This document shows positions 9,240 through 21,471 of a stretch of DNA of 64,000 nt, piece after piece. Source of the DNA: Thalassospiraceae bacterium LMO-JJ14 (GTDB taxonomy: Bacteria > Pseudomonadota > Alphaproteobacteria > Rhodospirillales > Casp-alpha2). The stretch spans positions 1,798,001 through 1,862,000 of the forward strand of contig CP134604.1 in assembly GCA_021555105.2 (NCBI GenBank). Reading direction: 5' to 3'. Within the stretch, counting starts at the first letter, position 1. Every line of letters starts with the position of its first letter. Both the position numbers and the translations under genes were made by a program. Under the pieces are notes generated by a model. That model had not been told where the DNA came from. It ran no database searches and was given only the letters and a program-made list of their open reading frames with translations.

Positions 9240-9662
9240 TTAGCCCGCGTTCCTGTCCGTATCGAAACCGGGCAGATCGTCGGCAATTTTCGACCACGAC
9301 ACCCGTGAACGGGTCCAGCTCTGATACGCCGGGCGGACGACGCCGGGATCATCCAGAGCCCCCGCTTTGACATACACCGTTTCTGGGTGCGATGGCGACG
9401 AGGTGAACAGCGGCGCGCCGCAATCGCCACAGAAATGCCGTGTCAGTTGCTGCCCGCTGTCGGCTGTCATGGTGTAGTCGCGCGGCGTTCCCTTGCTGAT
9501 CGTGAACAGATCCGCCTGCAGCCCGATGGAGATGTTAAAGGCGCTGCCGGTGGTCTTGCGGCAATCGCTGCAATGGCAATAGGCGGCGTCGGCGATTTCG
9601 CCCGTGTACGTGAAAGCCACGTTACCGCACAGGCAGGATCCGGTGATTTTTCTAGGGGGCAT
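9240..9662 (-). CDS. GFA (CENP-V/GFA zinc-fold) family protein
   Basis: 140-aa zinc protein of the glutathione-dependent formaldehyde-activating family. The cysteine pattern is clear: C-L-C-G-N-V (about 9-14), H-C-S-D-C-R-K-T-T-G-S (about 32-42) and F-C-G-D-C-G-A-P (about 80-87). The ATG at 9662 removes a 19-residue non-homologous lead. It overlaps the end of the EamA gene by 11 bp, so it is the last gene of the kinase/enolase-like operon. Members bind Zn and sometimes glutathione adducts; most are functionally unassigned. Confidence 0.85.
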   Translation of the reverse strand: MPPRKITGSCLCGNVAFTYTGEIADAAYCHCSDCRKTTGSAFNISIGLQADLFTISKGTPRDYTMTADSGQQLTRHFCGDCGAPLFTSSPSHPETVYVKAGALDDPGVVRPAYQSWTRSRVSWSKIADDLPGFDTDRNAG

Positions 9663-10542
9663 GATCCGGTTTTCCTCCCGCTCGTCCCTTGCGTGGTCCC
9701 ATAAGGACAGTGCCGGCAACGCCGATCATGATCAGGACCATGCCGGCGCCGCGCAACGGTCCGAAACCTTCGTCAAAAATAAGATACGACGCAAGGACAC
9801 CGGCGCAGGGCGCAAAAAGTGCGAACGGTGTCACCATGACGGCGGGGTAGGTGTTCAGCAACCGGCCCCAGACCGCAAATGCGACGGTCGTCGACACGAT
9901 GGCCAGATATCCAAGCGACAACAGGCTCACGGTGGAAGCGTTTTGGAACTGCGCGATCAGGTCGAAGCTGTCACCGATGGCATACGAGAAAAGAAAAGCG
10001 GGGATCGGCGGGACCAGGCTGAGCCAGATCATCAGCGCCAGCATGTCGACGTTGCCGAGACGTTTCAGGATGGTGTTGCCGATCGACCAGCTAACCGCGC
10101 CCGAGAGCGTCAGGCACAGGCCGAGATACGTCAGCTCGCCGTCGACACTGGCGAACACGAAGCCGAGACCGATGAAAGCGATGGCGACGGCGGAAATCTG
10201 GCGGGGCAGGGGGATTTCGCGCAATACGAAGGCGGCAATGAGGATGGTGAACAGCGCCTGCGTATGCGTGGCGACCGAGGCCAGCCCCGGCGGCATGCCG
10301 GCCTTGTAGGAAAAGAACAGGAACATGAACTGGCCGGTGAACAGAAAAAGCCCGAGCGCGATCAGCAAAAGCCAAGAAATGTCAGGCTTTTTGACGAAGA
10401 ATACCGGGAGCGCGGCGAGTAAGAAGCGGAAGCCGGTCAACTGTGCCGGGGTGAAGCTTTCAAGCGCGAATTCCGTGGCGACGAAGGCCAGTCCCCATAT
10501 CACGGCGACGGAAACCGCCAGCATGACATCGGTGGCTTTCAT
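9652..10542 (-). CDS. EamA/DMT-family transporter
   Basis: 296-aa membrane protein with ten predicted helices in two EamA repeats. It starts M-K-A-T-D-V-M-L with A-V-I-W-G-L-A-F-V near residue 17, and the second repeat begins near G-A-V-S-W-S-I-G-N-T. Exporters of amino acids or metabolites are common in this family. It sits 11 bp downstream of the enolase-like gene and overlaps the GFA gene, so it is part of the same transcript. Probably exports a product or by-product of the adjacent pathway; substrate unknown. Confidence 0.85.
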   Translation of the reverse strand: MKATDVMLAVSVAVIWGLAFVATEFALESFTPAQLTGFRFLLAALPVFFVKKPDISWLLLIALGLFLFTGQFMFLFFSYKAGMPPGLASVATHTQALFTILIAAFVLREIPLPRQISAVAIAFIGLGFVFASVDGELTYLGLCLTLSGAVSWSIGNTILKRLGNVDMLALMIWLSLVPPIPAFLFSYAIGDSFDLIAQFQNASTVSLLSLGYLAIVSTTVAFAVWGRLLNTYPAVMVTPFALFAPCAGVLASYLIFDEGFGPLRGAGMVLIMIGVAGTVLMGPRKGRAGGKPDHAP

Positions 10543-10553
10543 GGCTTGCGCAC

Positions 10554-11858
10554 TCAGCGCCAGTGAAACGCGGATTTGGGCGGCAGCGGTCCGTCCCTGT
10601 CGGCCAGCGTGTCGGCGATGCGGATGCCTTCGTTCCATTTCACCATGCGTTCCGATCGGGCGAACGAGCCGACCTTGAGCTGCGGCGCGCCCCAGCCGAC
10701 AGCCATATGCACGATGGTGCTGTCTTCGGTTTCGCCGGAGCGGGCCGAGACGATGCGCCCCATGCCAGCCTTGGCGGCGGCATCGAAGGCCGCCTTGGCT
10801 TCGCTCAGCGTGCCTGCCTGATTGGGTTTGCACAGCAAGGAGTTACACAGTCTGTCCTTGGCCGCCGCCTTGACCCGCGCGGCATTGGTGACGAACACGT
10901 CGTCGCCGACGACCTGCGCATTGTCGCCGACCGCCCAGGTGAACTTCATCAGCCCATCCGGGTCGTCCTCGCCCAGCGGGTCCTCGATGGAGACGATGGG
11001 ATAACGCTCCATCCAGTCGACGAGCATGGCGCACAGTTCCTCGCTGCTCAGCGTCCTGTCGTCCTTGGCGAGGGTGTATTTGCCGTTTTCACCGAATTCC
11101 GAAGCGGCGATATCAAGCGAGATGGAAACTTCGTTACCCGGCGTGAAACCGGCGCCCTCGATGGCGCGGACCAGGGTCTCCAGTGCTTCCTCGTTGGTGT
11201 CGAAGTCCGGCCAGAATCCGCCTTCGTCGGCGACGCCTGAGAGCTTGCCGGCGTCGGCCATGATCTTGCCGGCGCTGAGATAGACCTCGGCCGTCCAGTC
11301 CAGCGCTTCGCGGAAGCTCGCGGCGCCGGTGGCGATAACCATGAAGTCCTGTACATCGACGCGCCTCGATGCATGTGCGCCACCGCCGAAGATCTGGATT
11401 TCCGGCAACGGCAGCACGACATCGCCCCCTTTATCATCCCCGGCATCGCCGCGCAGGTACTGCCACAACGGCACGCCTTCGTGCGCCGCCGCGGCGTGCG
11501 CGATGGCCATGCTGGCGGCGACCGTGGCGTTACCGCCCAGACGTTTCTTGTTGGGCGTGCCGTCCAGCTCGATCATGAACTTGTCGAGCCGCGCCTGCTC
11601 GCGGACGTCCTGACCTTTCAGGACCTCGGCGATTTCCACATCGACGGCCTTTACGGCGTTGGTGACGTCCCAGCCGCCAAAGGATTTGCCGCCGTCGCGC
11701 AGATCGACGGCTTCGAAGCGGCCGCGTGAAGCACCGGCCGGGGCGATGGCGATGCCCTTTGTACCGCTCTCGAGTTCGACTTCGACCTCGACCGTCGGAC
11801 GGCCGCGGGAATCCCATACCCGGCGGGCGTGAAGGTTCTTGATGTTGTGTTTGGCCAT
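10554..11858 (-). CDS. divergent enolase paralogue with altered active site
   Basis: 434-aa enolase-family protein, clearly homologous over its length (D-S-R-G-R-P-T-V-E near 17, G-G-A-H-A near 160, the metal-binding D249, E292 and D319). It is not a standard glycolytic enolase. By comparison with the yeast enzyme, catalytic Glu168 is replaced by Asp171, and His373 of the S-H-R-S-G-E-T loop is replaced by Ala372. The Ser-loop reads A-G-A-S-R-G instead of S-G-A-S-T-G. Glu212, Lys344, Arg373, Ser374 and Lys395 are retained. It lies between an APH-fold kinase and an EamA exporter. It probably performs an enolase-like elimination on a different phosphorylated acid. Confidence 0.85.
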   Translation of the reverse strand: MAKHNIKNLHARRVWDSRGRPTVEVEVELESGTKGIAIAPAGASRGRFEAVDLRDGGKSFGGWDVTNAVKAVDVEIAEVLKGQDVREQARLDKFMIELDGTPNKKRLGGNATVAASMAIAHAAAAHEGVPLWQYLRGDAGDDKGGDVVLPLPEIQIFGGGAHASRRVDVQDFMVIATGAASFREALDWTAEVYLSAGKIMADAGKLSGVADEGGFWPDFDTNEEALETLVRAIEGAGFTPGNEVSISLDIAASEFGENGKYTLAKDDRTLSSEELCAMLVDWMERYPIVSIEDPLGEDDPDGLMKFTWAVGDNAQVVGDDVFVTNAARVKAAAKDRLCNSLLCKPNQAGTLSEAKAAFDAAAKAGMGRIVSARSGETEDSTIVHMAVGWGAPQLKVGSFARSERMVKWNEGIRIADTLADRDGPLPPKSAFHWR

Positions 11859-11888: not shown

Positions 11889-12908
11889 CTAGTTCTTGGT
11901 CAGATACGCATGCCATGCGTTATTGATGTCTATCGGATGATCGGCGGGATTTGTCAAAAACTGGCGCGCGACGGTACGGACATGATTTCTTTGGGCATCG
12001 TCGGTGATGTATTCGACCGGGGACTTGCCGTCGACCCGGGCCAGGAACAGACCGGGCAGCAAATGCGCGGTGCGCTGCATGATGTGGCGGTCGGCCATGG
12101 CCGCCGTCGCATCCTCGTAAGCGGCACAAAGCGCCTCGAAACATGCCCCGAACCCCGGTCGCGCGCCAGGTGTCCAAAGGCATTTCAACAACAGATGGTT
12201 GAGGCAGAATGCGAGATCGAACGCCGGGTCGCCGTACCAGGCGCACTCGGCATCGAGAAATACCGGGCCTTTTGGGCCGATCAGGATGTTCTTGGGGCTG
12301 ACATCGCCGTGTACCAGGGCGACTTTATGCGAAGCCGTGATCTCGGCCAGTTCGTTCAGGCGTGGGGCGACGTCGGGGCAGCGCGCGGCGGTCGCCAGCA
12401 GGTACGGCTCCAGCCGGATCGCATGGAAAATATCGTCGGTATCGAAGCGGGCGGATATTTCCGGGTGGTCCGACGTGCAGGCGTGAATGCAACCGAGCGT
12501 ACTGCCGACGGCGGTGGCGCTTGCCGGTTCGGCAATGCCGTCGCGGAGTTGCGCTTTCCACAGCGGCGCCGTCTCCGGCGGCAGAAAGGACATGGCGAAA
12601 AGACCGGCGCCCGGGTCGTGATACAGAACCTCGGGGACGGCTTCGGGGACGATGTCATGCACGGTTTTCATCCAGGCGACTTCATAGGCATTGCGCGAAA
12701 CCGGTGCCTGCCAGTCGTCGGCCACCTTGAGCTTGGCGAGCGCGCGCTTGACGCATATCGGGCCCGACGGCAGGTCGATGCGCCAGATATCGGAACTGAC
12801 GCCGCCGGTCAGCGCGGTGCAGGGCGGATCGTTATCCGATGTCAGCAGGCCACCGGCCCGCAAGGCGTTCAGGATATCCGTGGGTGCAGGCATGTTATCC
12901 GTCTGCAT
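11889..12908 (-). CDS. APH-fold small-molecule kinase
   Basis: 339-aa protein of the aminoglycoside phosphotransferase/choline-kinase superfamily. It has an N-terminal nucleotide lobe with T-G-G-V-S-S-D-I-W and I-C-V-K-R (ATP-binding lysine), the Brenner motif V-H-G-D-V-S-P-K-N-I-L near 200, and the metal-binding F-L-D-A-E-C-A-W-Y-G-D-P near 217. It begins 1 bp after the iclR stop and ends 30 bp before the enolase-like gene. It should phosphorylate a hydroxyl of a small metabolite. In this context it may make the substrate for the enolase-like enzyme. The substrate is unknown, and antibiotic resistance is unlikely. Confidence 0.82.
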   Translation of the reverse strand: MQTDNMPAPTDILNALRAGGLLTSDNDPPCTALTGGVSSDIWRIDLPSGPICVKRALAKLKVADDWQAPVSRNAYEVAWMKTVHDIVPEAVPEVLYHDPGAGLFAMSFLPPETAPLWKAQLRDGIAEPASATAVGSTLGCIHACTSDHPEISARFDTDDIFHAIRLEPYLLATAARCPDVAPRLNELAEITASHKVALVHGDVSPKNILIGPKGPVFLDAECAWYGDPAFDLAFCLNHLLLKCLWTPGARPGFGACFEALCAAYEDATAAMADRHIMQRTAHLLPGLFLARVDGKSPVEYITDDAQRNHVRTVARQFLTNPADHPIDINNAWHAYLTKN

Positions 12909-12909
12909 G

Positions 12910-13671
12910 TTATTCGAACGAGGCCGAGAGTTCGGCTGCGGCGCGCTGCAATCTGGGCACGTGGCCCATGGCCTGATCGAAGGTCATCCGCACGACAGGG
13001 CCGTGTGTTGCAAGGGTAGCCAGAAGCTTGCCTTTCTTGTCCGTCACCGGAACGGCGACCGCGACCATGCCGGGGATGAATTCCTCGTTATCCGTGCCGA
13101 TCTTGGTCTTGGCGATCTGGTCCGTGGCCTTCAACAGTTCATCGGCATCGGTAATCGAGTTGCTGGATTTCTTGTCGAGAGGCAGTTTCTCAATCAGCCT
13201 CTGGCGGCGCGATTTCGCAAGGCTGGAAAGGTACAGTTTGCCGCTGGCCGTGCAATGAAGCGGAACGTTTGAGCCGGTCGGCAACTGAATCCTGAGCGGC
13301 CATTCCGACTCGACGCGATCCAGATACTGCATCGACGTCGAGAGCGGCAGGGCGATGTTGCAGGTCTCGCCGATGTCGCGGGTTACGGATTCAAGAATGG
13401 CATGGCGCTCGCCACGGCCGCTCTGGTTTGATAACAGTTGAATGGCAAGCTTTGAAAAACGTTCCCCGGCCTCGTATCCGCGGCCATTGATGTCGCGGCG
13501 GAGGTAGCCTTCCTCGAGCAGGAGATTGCACAACCGGTGCACGGTCGCTTTCGGCAGTCCCGACGCCATTTCGATATCGATGGCGCTGGCGGGCCGGTCC
13601 ATGGCGCAGATGACTTCCAGAAGTTCAAGAACCCGGATCGAGCGCGATCCCGCGTTAGACTCGTCCTTCAA
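12910..13671 (-). CDS. IclR-family regulator (TTG start)
   Basis: 253-aa IclR regulator. An N-terminal winged helix (S-I-R-V-L-E-L-L-E-V, then L-P-K-A-T-V-H-R-L recognition helix) is followed by the effector-binding domain with H-C-T-A-S-G-K-L-Y-L and a C-terminal V-A-V-P-V segment. An ATG at 13752 would add 27 odd residues and crowd the divergent GMC gene. I prefer TTG at 13671, because AAGGAG sits 6 bp upstream of it on the minus strand and the protein then begins just before the conserved domain. It heads the kinase/enolase-like operon and probably controls it and the divergent oxidoreductase. Confidence 0.85.
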   Translation of the reverse strand: MKDESNAGSRSIRVLELLEVICAMDRPASAIDIEMASGLPKATVHRLCNLLLEEGYLRRDINGRGYEAGERFSKLAIQLLSNQSGRGERHAILESVTRDIGETCNIALPLSTSMQYLDRVESEWPLRIQLPTGSNVPLHCTASGKLYLSSLAKSRRQRLIEKLPLDKKSSNSITDADELLKATDQIAKTKIGTDNEEFIPGMVAVAVPVTDKKGKLLATLATHGPVVRMTFDQAMGHVPRLQRAAAELSASFE

Positions 13672-13769
13672 TGTAAGCTCCTTAAAAATAGAAAAGTTGT
13701 ACAAATTCTCATTTATGGAACGTAGAGTTTCATTGTTGCAACATTTTTGCAAGATGGTTAGTCTCGGGC
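13672..13769. promoter_or_regulatory. iclR / GMC divergent promoter region
   Basis: 98-bp AT-rich space. It includes the iclR Shine-Dalgarno (CTCCTT at 13678-13683, AAGGAG on the minus strand), which decides the TTG start. It also has a perfect 10-bp palindrome TGTTGCAACA at 13734-13743, a plausible operator for the IclR protein. Confidence 0.55.
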
Positions 13770-15392
13770 ATGCAAAATGAAGATGATTTTTACGACTATA
13801 TCATTGTCGGCGCCGGTTCCGCAGGCTGCGTTCTGGCGAATCGGCTAAGCGCTGACCGTTCACTCCGGGTCCTGCTTCTGGAAGCCGGTGGTCGCGACAG
13901 TAATCCGTGGATTCATGTCCCCGTCGGCTATTTCAAAACCCTGCACAATCCGAAAACCGACTGGTGTTACAAGACCGATCCCGAGCCGGGGCTTGGCGGC
14001 CGGCGTCTTGACTGGCCGCGCGGCAAGGTGCTCGGCGGCTCCAGTTCCATCAACGGGCTTTTGTATATCCGCGGTCAGGCCGAGGACTACGATCACTGGC
14101 GCCAACTTGGAAACCCCGGCTGGTCGCATACCGACATTCTGCCGTATTTCAAACGCGCCGAAGCTCAGGAACGCGGCGGCGACGACTATCATGGCGCCGA
14201 CGGGCCGCTCAAGGTTTCCGACATGCGCGCCAAGCGCGATGTCTGCGAAGCACTGATTGCCGCCGCCGAAGCGAACGGCATCCCGCGCAGCAATGATTTC
14301 AACGGTGCGACGCAGGAAGGGGCCGGATACTTCCAGATGACGGCGCACCACGGCCGGCGCTGGTCGACGGCGGTCGGCTATCTGCGCCCCATCGAACACC
14401 GCGATAATCTGCAGATCACCACGCATGCCACGGCCATCGAAATCATCTTTGCCGATGACGACCCGAAGCAGATCAGTGGCTTTGCCTACAGGAAAAACGG
14501 CACCCGGCACGAGGCGTACCTGCGTCCCGGCGGTGAAGTGATCCTGTCGGCCGGCGCCATCGGTTCGCCGCAGATATTGCAGGTATCGGGGATCGGCCCG
14601 GGCAAGCTGTTGAACAATCTGGGTGTCACGGTCCGCCATGAGCTCCGCGATGTCGGCGAGAACCTGCAGGACCACCTGCAGATCCGGATGATCTATGAAG
14701 TCAACGTGCCGACCCTGAATGACGAGATCAATAACCCGATCCGCCGTACCATGATGGGGATTGAGTACATCCTCAAGCGGACCGGACCGATGAGCATGGG
14801 TGCCAGTCAGGTCTGCATTTTCGCCAAGACCCGTCCGGACATGGAAACGCCCGATATCCAGTTCCATTTCCAGCCTCTGAGTGCCGACAAGCCGGGCATC
14901 AAGATGCATCCGTTTTCCGGCGTCACGTCGTCGATCTGTCAGTTGCGCCCGGAAAGCCGCGGCACGATTTCGATCACCTCACCCGACCCCGACGCCTATC
15001 CGTCGATCAAGCCGAATTACCTGTCGGCGGTGAAGGACCAGGAAACGGTCATCGACTCGATCAAGACGTCCAGGCGTATTTTCAACACCGCACCCCTGAA
15101 GGACTACATCGTCCGCGAACGCCTGCCGGGGCCGGATGTGCTCAAGGACGAGGATATCCTCGAAAGCGCACGCCAGATTGCGCAGACCATCTATCATCCG
15201 ACCAGCACCTGCCGCATGGGTGTCGACGACCATGCCGTGGTCGACCCCCGGCTTCGGGTTAACGGCGTCAAGGGGCTGCGCGTCGTCGACGCCTCGGTCA
15301 TGCCGACGATCGTATCGGGCAACACCAACGCGCCGACGATCATGATCGCCGAAAAGGCGTCTGACATGATTCTCGACGACCGGCGCGCCTGA
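13770..15392 (+). CDS. GMC-family FAD-dependent alcohol oxidoreductase
   Basis: 540-aa glucose-methanol-choline oxidoreductase, choline-dehydrogenase-like. The FAD dinucleotide motif is [14 protein letters not shown] (about 11-24), the GMC signature is [12 protein letters not shown] near 88, and catalytic His476 sits in H-P-T-S-T-C-R-M-G, with N-T-N-A-P near 518-522. No signal peptide, so cytoplasmic. It is divergent from iclR and probably under its control, so it may oxidise an alcohol at the entry to the kinase/enolase-like pathway. The exact substrate is unknown. Confidence 0.87.
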
Positions 15393-15786
15393 TCCTTTTC
15401 CGCAAAGAAAAAGCCGGGTCCCGAAGGACCCGGCGAGTTAGACAGGGAGAGAAGTCTCGGGGAGAGACTAGAAGCATTCTCAACATACCCTGTCCCCCTG
15501 TCATCAACAGTGACGGGGGTCACTCGGGATAATTTTTTCTAAAAATTTTTCCCGTCCTCCGGGTCGGTATGCAGGCCCCGATAAATGGCGGATTTCCAGG
15601 CGTTTCATTGCCTCTTGGGGGGCGTCGGGTTTTCCGGCATAATCTGGGCGTGCAGGAAAATTTCCACTGGAACGCAAAAATATTTGCAGTACCGCAGGGC
15701 GTCGTGGAACCTGCCGGGGCTGAGTCTCCGTATGCGTTTTCTCAGCCATTTGATGCCCCGTGTTCCTTCATGGATTGTGAGAGCAG
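15393..15786. other. 394-bp gene-free region with hairpins
   Basis: After the GMC gene a stem GCCGGGTCC-cgaa-GGACCCGGC (15413-15434) without a T-run may end the transcript or stabilise its 3' end. A second hairpin AGTCTC-ggggA-GAGACT (15453-15469) and a C5/G5-based stem (about 15493-15520) precede a T-rich stretch at 15532-15551, which is the better terminator candidate. I see no credible gene in the rest, which should hold the promoter for the SLC13 permease. Confidence 0.45.
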
Positions 15787-17655
15787 ATGGTTTTCACCAT
15801 AAGCGCCGATATGCAGATGTGGGTGACGTTTGCGATTATTCTGATCGCGCTCGCCGCCTATGTTGCCGAGAAATGGCCGATGGAGCTGACGTCGCTCGGC
15901 ACCATCTGTGCGGTGCTGCTGTTTTTCCAGTTCTTCCAGACCGCGCCGGATGAAGGCGGTAACGCCGGCTTGTCGCCGTCGCGCATCCTCGAAGGGTTCG
16001 CCAACACCGCCCTGATTGCCGTGCTGTCGCTTCTGGTCATGGGGCAGGGACTGATCCGCACCGGCATTCTTGACCGCGCCGCGCAATGGCTGCTCGATCA
16101 CATGCGTGCGCGAATTCCGGCAACGGCGGCGATTTTCGTCGTCCTGTTCATCGTCGGTGCGATCAGCGGCTTTCTCAACAACACCCCCGTGGTGGTGATC
16201 TTCATTCCGCTGATGCAGGCGCTGGCGCAGCGCTATCACATCTCGCCTAGCCGCGTCATGATTCCGCTCAGCTTCGCCGCCATATTGGGCGGCATGACGA
16301 CGCTGATCGGTTCCTCGACCAACCTTCTGGTCAATACGGCGCTGATTGAAATCGGCGAACGACCGCTGGGCTTTTTCGACTTCACGGTGCCGGGGGTGAT
16401 TCTGGCGCTGGCCGGGCTAGGCTATGCGGTGTTCGTGGTGCCGCGTATTCTGCCGGACCGTGCCGGGATGGCGGACAGGGTCACGACCGAGGGCGCGGGC
16501 AAGCAGTTCATCGTGCAGATCGAAACGCCGCCGAACTCGGAGCTGATCGGCGAAAGCGCGCCGGGCGGTTACTTCAAGGCGCTGCCGAACATGACCGTGC
16601 GTATGATCCAACGCGGCGAGCGTGCGATTTTGCCGCCGTTCGAGGATCTTAGCGTTGTCGAAGGCGATGTGATTGTCGTCGCGGCGACTCGGCCGGTGCT
16701 CAAGGAAGCGATTGCCGAACACGGCGAGCTTTTCCATCCCGACCTCAGAGACGGCAAGGCGCTGGACGACGATAACGATGATGCGCCATGGCGTCAGGCC
16801 GATCAGGTCCTCGCCGAAGTGATGATTGCACCGGCATCGCGGTTTGTCGGGCAGACGCTCAGGCTTGCCGGGTTCCGCTACAAGACCGGTTGCATCGTGC
16901 TCGGCATCCAGCGTCGCGCCCGCATGATCCGCGCCCGGATCACCGAGATCCGGCTCGAACCCGGCGACGTGCTTCTGGTGCAGGGACAGCGCGATCACAT
17001 TCGCCAACTCAGGGGCGGGCGCGATGCGATCCTGATCGAATCGTCGCGTGAAGACCTGCCGAGCCTGGATCACGTCAAGCGCGCCAGCCTGATCTTTCTA
17101 GGCGCCGTTTTCTGCGCCGCGACCGGATTGATGCCGATCGTCGTCGCCGCCTTTGCCGGGGCCATTGCCATGGTCGCGACCGGTGTCCTCAATCTGCGCC
17201 AGGCATTCCGCGCCATCGATCCGAAAATCGCCACCGCGATTGCCGCCGCGCTGGCGATGAGTATCGCGCTCAGGGAAACCGGCGGCGCCGCCTTTCTGGC
17301 GCATGGTATGGTTTCCGTCTTCGCCGGACAGGGCGCGATCGTCATTCTGTCGTTGCTGTTCCTGATCGCGGCCTTGATGACCAACGTGATCTCAAACAAT
17401 GCGGTTGCGGTGCTGTTTACGCCGATTGCCATCGACCTTGCCTACGAGGTCGGCGCGGAGCCCATGCTGTTCGCCATCGCCATGGTGTTCGCCGCGAACT
17501 GTTCGTTCGCCTCGCCGATGGGCTATCAGACCAATCTGCTGGTCATGGGGCCGGGGCATTACAAGTTTCAGGATTTCGCCCGCGCCGGGTTGCCGCTGAT
17601 CATCCTCATGTGGATCGCCTTCACGTTGGTCGCCAAGTTCTTCTGGGGGCTTTAG
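15787..17655 (+). CDS. SLC13/DASS-type anion permease with RCK_C domains
   Basis: 622-aa membrane transporter. Two hydrophobic halves (about 10-210 and 425-620) flank a soluble central part (about 235-410) that reads as two TrkA-C (RCK_C) regulatory domains. The first half has F-L-N-N-T-P-V-V-V and I-G-S-S-T-N-L-L, and the second has V-I-S-N-N-A-V-A-V and P-M-G-Y-Q-T-N, the paired substrate/Na-binding motifs of this family. Such proteins import sulfate, dicarboxylates or similar anions. The substrate cannot be told; C4-dicarboxylate or sulfate/sulfonate are the usual options. Confidence 0.87.
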   Translation: MVFTISADMQMWVTFAIILIALAAYVAEKWPMELTSLGTICAVLLFFQFFQTAPDEGGNAGLSPSRILEGFANTALIAVLSLLVMGQGLIRTGILDRAAQWLLDHMRARIPATAAIFVVLFIVGAISGFLNNTPVVVIFIPLMQALAQRYHISPSRVMIPLSFAAILGGMTTLIGSSTNLLVNTALIEIGERPLGFFDFTVPGVILALAGLGYAVFVVPRILPDRAGMADRVTTEGAGKQFIVQIETPPNSELIGESAPGGYFKALPNMTVRMIQRGERAILPPFEDLSVVEGDVIVVAATRPVLKEAIAEHGELFHPDLRDGKALDDDNDDAPWRQADQVLAEVMIAPASRFVGQTLRLAGFRYKTGCIVLGIQRRARMIRARITEIRLEPGDVLLVQGQRDHIRQLRGGRDAILIESSREDLPSLDHVKRASLIFLGAVFCAATGLMPIVVAAFAGAIAMVATGVLNLRQAFRAIDPKIATAIAAALAMSIALRETGGAAFLAHGMVSVFAGQGAIVILSLLFLIAALMTNVISNNAVAVLFTPIAIDLAYEVGAEPMLFAIAMVFAANCSFASPMGYQTNLLVMGPGHYKFQDFARAGLPLIILMWIAFTLVAKFFWGL

Positions 17656-18720: not shown

Positions 18721-19893
18721 ATGAATACGCTACAGAAGCCGGACGTCCGTCCGGCGAACCCCAATTTTTCATCAGGTCCCTGTTCCAAACGCCCCGGCTG
18801 GCGCCCCGACGTGCTGGCGGATGCGTTTCTTGGACGCTCGCACCGTCACGCCACCGGCAAGAAGCTGTTGCACGAAGTGATTGAGCGGACCCGCGCCATC
18901 CTCGGCATTCCCGACGATTACCGCATCGGCATCGTGCCGGGTTCTGACACCGGGGCCATCGAAATGGCGCTGTGGTCCGTGCTGGGCGCGCGCGGCGTCG
19001 AGGTGCTGTCGTGGGAAAGCTTCGGCAAGCAGTGGGCCGCCGACATCACCAAGCACCTGAAGCTGGACGACGTCAAACTGTCGGATGCCGCTTATGGCGA
19101 TATCCCCGATCTCAGCCAGGCCGACTTCACGCGCGATGTGGTCTTTACGTGGAACGGCACGACCGGCGGCGTCAAGGTGCCGAACGGCGAGTGGATTCCG
19201 GCTGAGCGCGAAGGTCTGAGCATCGTCGATGGTACATCGGCCGTGTTCGCCATGGATATCCCCTGGGACAAGGTCGATATCTGCACATGGTCGTGGCAGA
19301 AGGCGATGGGCGGCGAGGCCGCGCACGGCATGCTGGTGTTGAGCCCCCGCGCCGTCGAACGTATCGAAAGCTACAACCCGCCGTGGCCGATGCCGAAGGT
19401 GTTCCGCCTCAAGAAAGGCGACAAGCTGAACGAGGACGTGTTCGCCGGCCTGACCATCAACACGCCGTCGATGCTGTGCGTCGAGGACGCGCTGGACGGC
19501 CTCAAGTGGGCCGAGAGTATCGGCGGTCTGCCGACACTGCTGGGCCGGGTCGAGGCCAGCTTCAAGGCGCTGAGTGCCTGGGTCGAGCAGGCGGACTGGA
19601 TCGATTTCATCTGCAAGGATCCGGCATCGCGTTCCGATACCTCTGTCGTGCTGGTCGTCACCGATCCGTGGTTCCAGGCGATGGACGAGGACGGGCAGCG
19701 TGACCTCATCAAGAAGCTGACGAGCCTTCTGGAGGCGGAAGGCGCGGCCTTCGATATCGGTTCGCACCGCGATGCCCCCCCGGGGCTTCGTATCTGGTGC
19801 GGCGCCACGGTTGAGGCGACGGACATCGCCGAACTCGGGCCATGGCTCGACTGGGCGTATCACACCGTCAAATCAAACCTGCAGGAGGCCTGA
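18721..19893 (+). CDS. serC: phosphoserine aminotransferase
   Basis: Second step of serine synthesis: transaminates 3-phosphohydroxypyruvate with glutamate. 390 aa, the longer alphaproteobacterial form. N-F-S-S-G-P-C near residue 16 matches the family start. The PLP lysine is in S-W-Q-K-A-M-G-G-E (about 195-203), with W-N-G-T-T-G-G-V upstream as a phosphate and cofactor contact. It ends 3 bp before serA, so the two form an operon. The gene follows a structured leader that overlaps its ribosome-binding site. Confidence 0.95.
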   Translation: MNTLQKPDVRPANPNFSSGPCSKRPGWRPDVLADAFLGRSHRHATGKKLLHEVIERTRAILGIPDDYRIGIVPGSDTGAIEMALWSVLGARGVEVLSWESFGKQWAADITKHLKLDDVKLSDAAYGDIPDLSQADFTRDVVFTWNGTTGGVKVPNGEWIPAEREGLSIVDGTSAVFAMDIPWDKVDICTWSWQKAMGGEAAHGMLVLSPRAVERIESYNPPWPMPKVFRLKKGDKLNEDVFAGLTINTPSMLCVEDALDGLKWAESIGGLPTLLGRVEASFKALSAWVEQADWIDFICKDPASRSDTSVVLVVTDPWFQAMDEDGQRDLIKKLTSLLEAEGAAFDIGSHRDAPPGLRIWCGATVEATDIAELGPWLDWAYHTVKSNLQEA

Positions 19894-19896
19894 GCC

Positions 19897-21471
19897 ATGC
19901 CAAAGGTTCTGATTTCCGACAAAATGTCGCCACTGGCTGCCGAGGTCTTTGCGAACCGCGGCGTCGAGGTTGATGTGATCACCGATCTCGACAAGGATCA
20001 GCTTGCCGAAAAGATCGGCGAATACGACGGCATCGCCATTCGCTCGGCGACCAAGATCACGCCGAAGACGCTGGCCAATCCCGGCAAGTTGAAAGTCATC
20101 GGCCGCGCCGGCATCGGTGTCGACAATGTCGACGTCAAGGCCGCGACGGGGGCCGGGATCGTCGTCATGAACACGCCGTTTGGCAACGCGATTACGACAG
20201 CCGAACACGCCATCACGATGATGTTGTCGCTGGCCCGGCAAATCCCGGCGGCGAATGCCTCGACCCATGCCGGCAAGTGGGAGAAATCCCGCTTCATGGG
20301 CGTCGAGCTAATGGGCAAGACGCTCGGCATCATCGGCTGCGGCAACATCGGCGCCATCGTCGCCGACCGCGCGCAGGGCCTGAAGATGAAGGTCATCGCC
20401 TTCGACCCGTTCCTGTCCGAGGAACGCGCCGAAAATCTCGGCGTGGAAAAAGTTGAGCTGGACGAATTGCTGCCGCGTGCGGATTTCATCAGCCTGCACA
20501 CGCCGCTGACCGACCAGACGCGCAACATCATCGATGCGACTGCGCTGAACAAGACTAAGGCAGGTGTGCGGATCGTCAACTGCGCGCGCGGCGGTCTCGT
20601 CGACGAGGTTGCCCTGAAGGCCGCGCTCGAGAGCGGTCACGTTGCGGGGGCCGCGCTCGACGTTTATGCCGAGGAACCGGCCAAGGAGAACGCTCTGTTC
20701 GGCATGGAGCAGGTGGTCTGCACGCCGCATCTGGGCGCATCGACATCGGAAGCGCAGGAAAAGGTTGCCGTTCAGGTCGCCGAACAGATGGCGGATTATC
20801 TGCTGTCGGGCGCCGTCACCAACGCACTCAACATGGCGTCGGTGACCGCTGAGGAGGCACCGAAACTCAAACCTTACATGGTGCTGGCCGAGCAGCTGGG
20901 CGGGTTTGCCGGGCAGGCGACGCAAAGCGCCATCAAGGGGATCGAGATTTGTTATGAAGGCGATGTTTCAACGCTCAACACCAAGCCGCTGACGGCAATC
21001 GTGCTCAAAGGATTGCTCGGTCCGCTATTGGAAGGCGTCAACATGGTCAACGCGCCGGTCATAGCCGAGGATCGCAACATAAAGATTCTCGAGGCGAGGT
21101 CGGAAACGGCGGGGAACTATCACACCCTGATCACCGTCAACGTGACGACCGAAAACCAGGAACGCTCCGTCAAGGGGACGTTGTTCAATCACGAACCGCG
21201 GCTTGTTGAGATCAAGGGCATTCACATCGATGCCAAGCTCGGCCCGAACATGCTGTATCTGGCCAACCACGACAAACCGGGGCTGATCGGGGCACTTGGA
21301 AGTGTGCTGGGCGAGGCCGGGGTGAACATCGCGACCTTCAACCTGGGCCGCGCCGATCAGGGCGGCGACGCGATTGCCCTGATCGAGATCGACGGTCAGC
21401 CGCCGGCGGACGTCGTGACGCGGGTCAAGGCGCTTGAGCATGTCGTGCATGCGATTCCAATGAGCTTCTGA
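19897..21471 (+). CDS. serA: D-3-phosphoglycerate dehydrogenase
   Basis: First committed step of serine synthesis: NAD-linked oxidation of 3-phosphoglycerate. 524 aa, the long type with catalytic and NAD domains (G-I-I-G-C-G-N-I-G near 147; R-A-G-I-G-V-D-N-V near 70; active-site H in C-T-P-H-L-G-A-S near 280), an intervening domain, and a C-terminal ACT domain (about 450-524) for serine feedback. Operon with serC (3-bp gap). A hairpin-plus-T terminator follows. Confidence 0.96.
   Translation: MPKVLISDKMSPLAAEVFANRGVEVDVITDLDKDQLAEKIGEYDGIAIRSATKITPKTLANPGKLKVIGRAGIGVDNVDVKAATGAGIVVMNTPFGNAITTAEHAITMMLSLARQIPAANASTHAGKWEKSRFMGVELMGKTLGIIGCGNIGAIVADRAQGLKMKVIAFDPFLSEERAENLGVEKVELDELLPRADFISLHTPLTDQTRNIIDATALNKTKAGVRIVNCARGGLVDEVALKAALESGHVAGAALDVYAEEPAKENALFGMEQVVCTPHLGASTSEAQEKVAVQVAEQMADYLLSGAVTNALNMASVTAEEAPKLKPYMVLAEQLGGFAGQATQSAIKGIEICYEGDVSTLNTKPLTAIVLKGLLGPLLEGVNMVNAPVIAEDRNIKILEARSETAGNYHTLITVNVTTENQERSVKGTLFNHEPRLVEIKGIHIDAKLGPNMLYLANHDKPGLIGALGSVLGEAGVNIATFNLGRADQGGDAIALIEIDGQPPADVVTRVKALEHVVHAIPMSF

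What the first reader, a model, noticed from the sequence alone, without database searches (positions are those of the whole stretch)
10554..11858. Enolase paralogue with catalytic replacements Glu-to-Asp and His-to-Ala
Compared with yeast enolase, Glu168 corresponds to Asp171 and His373 to Ala372, and the Ser-loop is changed from S-G-A-S-T-G to A-G-A-S-R-G. The metal ligands (D249, E292, D319), Glu212 and both lysines (K344, K395) are kept. The metal and base machinery survives while substrate-contact residues change, which suggests a new substrate, not decay. The C-terminus is also unlike that of glycolytic enolase.
Basis: partly seen in the sequence, partly recalled or inferred. Interest (0 to 1): 0.6.

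Follow-up and report, generated by a model that had tools for sequence, protein, structure and literature searches.

The report
Enolase paralogue paired with a kinase
A gene that databases call the glycolysis enzyme enolase belongs to a separate, widespread bacterial family whose leaving-group pocket has been rebuilt and which almost always travels with a small-molecule kinase, so the two probably form an undescribed two-step pathway on another 2-hydroxy acid.

Summary
Window 10554-11858 (-) encodes an enolase with Asp at yeast Glu168 and Ala at His373, and the genome has a separate canonical enolase (44.7% identity). One correction: the metal-binding Ser39 is kept; the changed loop serine is Ser36. 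This is a family, not one odd gene. All 105 homologues collected carry Asp168/Ala373, N152Q, N155G, A215W and T397V, and keep both Mg sites, the Lys345 base (104/105), the Glu211 acid, Lys396, His159 and phosphate-binding Arg374/Ser375. They form one clade (100/100) with a long stem, and the window lineage is under purifying selection. Genome-wide it is present in 18/18 tested genomes with an intact paralogue and 0/30 without. In two related genomes one deletion removes most of both. Third partners vary: D-2-hydroxyacid dehydrogenases, FAH hydrolase with SDRs and sugar transporters, once PEP carboxylase. Best reading: the kinase 2-phosphorylates a 2-hydroxy acid and the paralogue eliminates from it to a phosphoenol acid. 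Fold, family, pairing and retained residues are shown; substrate and reaction are inferred. I found no description in the open literature searched. New variant of a known kind.

The parts
10554..11858 (-). enolase paralogue (E168D, H373A clade); proposed 2-phospho-acid dehydratase or lyase
   Evidence: AlphaFold2 model pLDDT 93.8, closest folds are enolases (Z 59.4 to 5ohg, rmsd 1.4 A, 44% identity)
11889..12908 (-). APH-fold small-molecule kinase, remote to methylthioribose kinase; near-obligate partner; 30 bp upstream of the enolase
   Evidence: adjacent in 97/98 loci; genome co-occurrence 18/18 against 0/30; catalytic HGD..N and DAE motifs more than 95% conserved
12910..13752 (-). IclR-family regulator, first gene of the probable operon (likely start near 13704)
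   Evidence: 1 bp before the kinase; conserved only in the window's own clade (L028, L030, L031)
9652..10542 (-). EamA-family transporter, next gene downstream (11 bp); lineage-specific member of the operon
   Evidence: conserved in L028-L031 only

Best explanation
The gene is a member of a distinct family within the enolase subgroup that works in series with the APH-type kinase beside it. Step 1 (inferred): the kinase phosphorylates the C2 hydroxyl of a 2-hydroxy acid, most likely a (2R)-2,3-dihydroxy acid delivered by a D-2-hydroxyacid dehydrogenase, an FAH-type hydrolase or an aldehyde dehydrogenase, depending on the species. Step 2 (inferred from retained residues): the paralogue binds the 2-phospho acid through two Mg ions, Arg374, Ser375 and Lys396; Lys345 takes the C2 proton and Glu211 helps expel the C3 leaving group, giving a phosphoenol acid. 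Because Glu168, His373, Ala215 and Asn155 around the leaving group are all replaced, the substrate should differ from 2-phospho-D-glycerate at or next to C3. The product could be a C3-substituted phosphoenol acid, or PEP itself formed from an unusual substrate. Shown: the family, the pairing with the kinase, the retained and replaced residues, and canonical eno alongside. Not shown: substrate, product and direction.
For: E168D, H373A, N152Q, N155G, A215W and T397V are invariant in 105/105, while H159, S39, E211, D246, E295, D320, D321, R374, S375 and K396 are kept in 105/105 and K345 in 104/105. Roles from PMC4450660: K345 base, E211 acid, S39 and D321 at Mg(II), and E168, E211, K345, R374, S375 binding 2-PGA. 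Kinase adjacent in 97/98 loci with spacing near zero. In G298 and G080 it is unlinked but still present. Genome-wide 18/18 against 0/30. In G734/G736 a deletion fuses the kinase N-terminus to the enolase C-terminus, removing most of both together. The pair is also on a Persicobacter (Bacteroidota) plasmid. Partners acting on 2-keto/2-hydroxy acids recur: same-strand adjacent D-2-hydroxyacid dehydrogenases in 22 of 137 loci, from several diverged groups (about 33-38% identity to each other), one PanE-type reductase, and a dehydrogenase next to the kinase in G080 where the enolase is elsewhere. FAH is adjacent in 15 of 137 loci, with SDR and sugar ABC genes in the Rhodobacterales operon. PEP carboxylase sits beside dehydrogenase-kinase in Rhizobium.
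Against: No substrate is known and no assay exists. Phosphate on C2 is inferred from conserved residues, and the kinase could act elsewhere on the molecule. Third partners differ between lineages, so there may be more than one substrate. Ppc and pyk neighbours, and serC/serA near the window gene, would also fit an ordinary 2-PGA to PEP role. One FAH operon (L089) has its own IlvD-type dehydratase, so the pair is not simply the missing sugar-acid dehydratase there.
Confidence: 0.55

Rival explanations
1. It is an ordinary 2-PGA enolase isozyme serving a glycerate branch as in the serine cycle: dehydrogenase makes D-glycerate, kinase makes 2-PGA, paralogue makes PEP, and PEP carboxylase or pyruvate kinase uses it.
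For: It passes the TIGR01060 eno cut-off. Catalytic base, acid, both metals and phosphate binders are kept. D-2-hydroxyacid dehydrogenase, ppc, pyk and serine-glyoxylate aminotransferase-like genes lie near some loci.
Against: Canonical eno is present in the same genomes. Residues around the leaving hydroxyl (E168, H373, A215, N155) are replaced and then invariant, which fits a changed specificity better than a duplicated activity. From memory, E168Q and H373F cripple yeast enolase, though H373N keeps about 10%.
Confidence: 0.2
2. The pair turns the opposite enantiomer or an unusual C3 acid (for example L-glycerate from FAH cleavage of L-sugar acids or from L-glyceraldehyde oxidation) into PEP. 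This is a special case of the best explanation, listed apart because it names a substrate.
For: FAH/SDR operons with sugar transporters should give pyruvate plus a 2-hydroxy acid by analogy with PMC11199699. The Persicobacter pair follows an aldehyde dehydrogenase and lies near sugar isomerase-like, kinase-like and aldolase-like genes named by eye. PEP carboxylase neighbours.
Against: Lys345, which takes the proton of the D isomer, is kept in 104/105. Partner dehydrogenases belong to the D-specific family.
Confidence: 0.12
3. The pair is an ATP-primed sugar-acid dehydratase: aldonate is 2-phosphorylated, dehydrated to the phosphoenol 2-keto-3-deoxy acid, and the phosphate is passed back to ADP by the kinase; FAH and SDR then finish the pathway.
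For: In several Rhodobacterales operons FAH and SDRs occur with sugar ABC genes and no other dehydratase was seen within the stretch examined.
Against: L089 carries an IlvD-type dehydratase in the same operon. G736, with an MR/MLE dehydratase-like gene upstream, has lost the pair but kept FAH and SDR. Most loci have no FAH. The return transfer by the kinase is speculative.
Confidence: 0.1
4. A pseudo-enzyme, or a duplicated enolase kept for a non-catalytic (moonlighting) role.
For: Two canonical active-site residues are replaced.
Against: The base, acid, metal and phosphate ligands are essentially invariant, the family is under purifying selection, and it is coupled to a kinase.
Confidence: 0.03

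Closest known systems
Phosphopyruvate hydratase (glycolytic enolase, EC 4.2.1.11, TIGR01060)
   Same: Whole fold (Z 59.4, rmsd 1.4 A to E. coli enolase), both Mg sites including Ser39, Lys345, Glu211, Lys396, His159, Arg374, Ser375
   Different: E168D, H373A, A215W, N152Q, N155G, T397V and a loop-2 Arg-Arg; separate clade; coexists with canonical eno; tied to a kinase gene
MR/MLE-type sugar-acid dehydratases of the enolase superfamily (such as galactonate or fuconate dehydratase)
   Same: Superfamily chemistry of proton abstraction alpha to a carboxylate; some loci share FAH and SDR partners with route-3 sugar-acid pathways (PMC11199699)
   Different: The paralogue is an enolase-subgroup protein with phosphate and second-metal ligands kept; only a weak, below cut-off MR_MLE_C match
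Serine-cycle segment: hydroxypyruvate reductase, glycerate 2-kinase, enolase, PEP carboxylase (recalled)
   Same: Gene set logic of D-hydroxyacid dehydrogenase, kinase, enolase and, in Rhizobium, ppc
   Different: The kinase is of the APH fold, not a glycerate kinase family, and the enolase has an altered leaving-group pocket
Carboxyphosphonoenolpyruvate synthase of phosphinothricin biosynthesis (recalled)
   Same: An enolase homologue with a non-glycolytic reaction
   Different: No phosphonate-pathway genes were recognised near these loci; sequence not compared here

Membership tests
Enolase superfamily, enolase subgroup | Enolase_N and Enolase_C domains and enolase fold | tested here: met
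Enolase superfamily, enolase subgroup | Mg(I) ligands D246, E295, D320 and Lys345 base | tested here: met
   105/105 for the ligands, 104/105 for K345
Enolase superfamily, enolase subgroup | Second Mg site (Ser39, Asp321) and phosphate binders Arg374, Ser375 | tested here: met
   105/105 each
Glycolytic enolase (EC 4.2.1.11) | Glu168 contacting 2-PGA and the leaving hydroxyl | tested here: not met
   Asp in 105/105; Glu in 24/24 canonical
Glycolytic enolase (EC 4.2.1.11) | His373 in the leaving-group pocket | tested here: not met
   Ala in 105/105; His in 24/24 canonical
Glycolytic enolase (EC 4.2.1.11) | Score above the curated TIGR01060 cut-off | tested here: met
   461.7 bits against 300, which explains the public names
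Glycolytic enolase (EC 4.2.1.11) | Activity on 2-phospho-D-glycerate | not testable with these tools
   needs an enzyme assay
Methylthioribose kinase (TIGR01767), for the partner | Score above curated cut-off | tested here: not met
   partner kinase scores 53.7 bits against 275
APH phosphotransferase superfamily (PF01636), for the partner | Profile match and catalytic HxD..N and D-x-E/D motifs | tested here: met
   56.3 bits against 23.2; motifs conserved in more than 95% of 84 sequences
Carboxyphosphonoenolpyruvate synthase | Sequence similarity and phosphonate gene cluster | not tested
   no reference sequence was compared; no phosphonate genes were recognised among the neighbours inspected

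The most novel reading that the evidence does not exclude
A second reaction evolved within the enolase subgroup itself: a kinase and enolase pair that activates and dehydrates (or eliminates from) a C3-altered 2-phospho acid, forming an undescribed route from sugar-acid-derived hydroxy acids to phosphoenol acids in Proteobacteria and at least one Bacteroidota plasmid.
Probability: 0.5. Interest if true: 0.75.

Novelty: new variant of a known kind. Interest (0 to 1): 0.6.

Why it matters
Enolase is a textbook example of a strictly conserved, single-function enzyme, and members of this clade are publicly named phosphopyruvate hydratase; the window protein clears the TIGR01060 cut-off. If the clade has another substrate, the annotation is wrong in the genomes that carry it (about 6% of alphaproteobacterial species sampled, 25 of 385). 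There would also be a new example of how the enolase leaving-group pocket can be re-tuned, and a new phosphorylated route for hydroxy acids. The kinase pairing makes the substrate question directly testable with two proteins.

Tried and rejected
Alignment slip as the cause of the replacements: rejected. Decay or pseudogene: rejected for the window lineage; true only for the fused remnants in G734/G736. 3-Sulfolactate as substrate (sulfolactate-like genes upstream in two Roseibium-type loci, L093 and L096): seen in two near-identical neighbourhoods only, so not pursued. One universal third gene: none found; FAH in 15, hydroxyacid dehydrogenase in 22 of 137 loci. Apparent reverse-strand neighbours (cluster 8) were shadow frames of the kinase gene. 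Literature: eight searches aimed at this family or its pathway, in the open-access library only, found no description of the clade or the pair; a ninth was for enolase mutants. The genomes used for kinase co-occurrence were hand-picked from handles already searched, not random.

Full report
What is there. The ORF at 10554-11858 (-) encodes a 434-residue protein with both enolase domains. The window lies at 1798001-1862000 of a 3.89 Mb single-contig genome, which also holds a canonical enolase at 2476595-2477446 with 44.7% identity to the paralogue. Aligned to yeast enolase 1 (sequence recalled, then checked against PDB 1ebg, 435/436), Glu168 is Asp171 and His373 is Ala372. One correction: the Mg(II) ligand Ser39 is retained as Ser44, and the altered loop serine is Ser36.

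A family, not an oddity. A protein search of genome contigs and a degenerate DNA pattern for the VSARSGETED motif returned loci from Alpha-, Beta- and Gammaproteobacteria and one acidobacterial MAG. The pattern requires Ala at the His373 position, so the 24 further genomes it found carry that residue by construction. The 80 loci from the protein search were not selected that way. Across 105 sequences Asp168 and Ala373 are invariant, as are Gln152, Gly155, Trp215 and Val397. Loop 2 carries Arg-Arg (93 and 102 of 105). Everything known to hold the carboxylate, phosphate and metals is kept: D246, E295, D320, D321, S39, H159, E211, R374, S375 and K396 in all, K345 in 104. According to PMC4450660, K345 is the base, E211 the acid, S39 and D321 serve Mg(II), and E168, E211, K345, R374 and S375 bind 2-PGA. 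From memory, His373, Glu168 and Glu211 share the water at the leaving-group position. So what was rebuilt is the leaving-group pocket, with the rest intact.

Phylogeny and selection. A maximum-likelihood tree of 36 paralogues and 24 canonical enolases separates them at 100/100, with a stem of 0.95 changes per site. Pairwise dN/dS among the window gene and three close relatives is 0.04-0.13 for the enolase and 0.14-0.18 for the kinase; several dS values are near or above 1, so these are rough. Of 24 genomes with the paralogue, 23 also have a canonical copy; the exception is 63% complete. An AlphaFold2 model (mean pLDDT 93.8) matches enolases over the full length (Z 59.4, rmsd 1.4 A), which confirms the fold and says nothing on substrate.

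The kinase partner. Directly upstream, 30 bp away, is a kinase of the APH superfamily (PF01636), remotely like methylthioribose kinase but far below that family's cut-off. In 97 of 98 loci with enough upstream sequence the same kinase precedes the enolase on the same strand, usually overlapping or within about 20 bp. Exceptions are informative. In G298 and G080 the kinase is on another contig, and in G080 it sits in a unit with a 2-hydroxyacid dehydrogenase and an SDR. In Rhizobium-type loci it lies about 4.5-8 kb away on the opposite strand, beside a dehydrogenase. Across 50 genomes the kinase was found in all 18 with an intact paralogue and in none of 30 with only canonical enolase; these genomes were chosen by hand. 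In G734 and G736 a deletion fused the first 60 or so residues of the kinase to the C-terminal part of the enolase. A Persicobacter (Bacteroidota) plasmid carries a more distant pair, 49% (enolase) and 39% (kinase) identical, with the same Asp/Ala and Trp signature.

Third partners. None is universal. Of 137 loci scanned (some overlapping), 22 have a same-strand D-2-hydroxyacid dehydrogenase within 700 bp of kinase or enolase, from several groups only about 33-38% identical to one another; one has a PanE-type reductase; 15 have an FAH-type hydrolase. In Rhodobacterales the order is LacI, kinase, enolase, FAH, SDRs and sugar ABC genes, the FAH being closest to 2,4-didehydro-3-deoxy-L-rhamnonate hydrolase but below its cut-off. 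In Rhizobium indicum PEP carboxylase, dehydrogenase and kinase share a strand. In the window's own clade the operon is IclR, kinase, enolase, EamA transporter. Gene names for loci without annotation come from family scans where cited and otherwise from reading the sequence.

Mechanism. The most economical reading is that the kinase phosphorylates O2 of a 2-hydroxy acid and the paralogue removes the C3 group to give a phosphoenol acid. Steps shown: protein family, conserved residues, pairing. Steps inferred: position of phosphate, identity of the leaving group, substrate, direction. The rivals are an ordinary 2-PGA isozyme in a glycerate branch, an enantiomer or unusual C3 substrate leading to PEP, and an ATP-primed aldonate dehydratase. 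L089, which has an IlvD-type dehydratase in the same operon, and G736, which kept FAH and SDR after losing the pair, argue against the last as a general answer.

Novelty. Public plasmid records call these genes eno, phosphopyruvate hydratase. Literature searches in the open-access library found no account of the clade or the pair; subscription papers are not covered. I rate it a new variant of a known kind: enolase chemistry with a changed pocket and a dedicated kinase.

Noticed in passing
L150:9662-10135 and L143:1306-1779: In-frame fusion ORF joining the kinase N-terminus to the enolase C-terminus in two genomes of one genus (G736, G734); FAH and SDR genes follow intact in G736.
   Followed up: yes
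window 18721-21471: serC and serA lie about 7 kb from the paralogue; the same synteny occurs in seven Rhodospirillaceae-type loci, so it may be plain chromosomal order.
   Followed up: partly
L132 (G053:C16:26860-27705): A third, unrelated enolase paralogue with Glu at the His373 position, Glu168 kept and a PAGRSTG loop; very long branch (1.8).
   Followed up: no
L093 and L096, about 0.6-4 kb: UxaA/SuyB-like, Ldh2-like and YeiH-type exporter genes (sulfolactate-like set, named by eye) upstream of the LacI-kinase-enolase operon.
   Followed up: no
window 13770-17655: Choline-dehydrogenase-like GMC oxidoreductase and a DASS-type transporter on the + strand, divergent from the IclR-kinase-enolase operon.
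   Followed up: no
L192 (Persicobacter plasmid CP012861.1): Kinase-enolase pair in Bacteroidota preceded by an aldehyde dehydrogenase and near sugar isomerase-like, PfkB-like and class II aldolase-like genes (named by eye); useful for guessing the substrate.
   Followed up: partly
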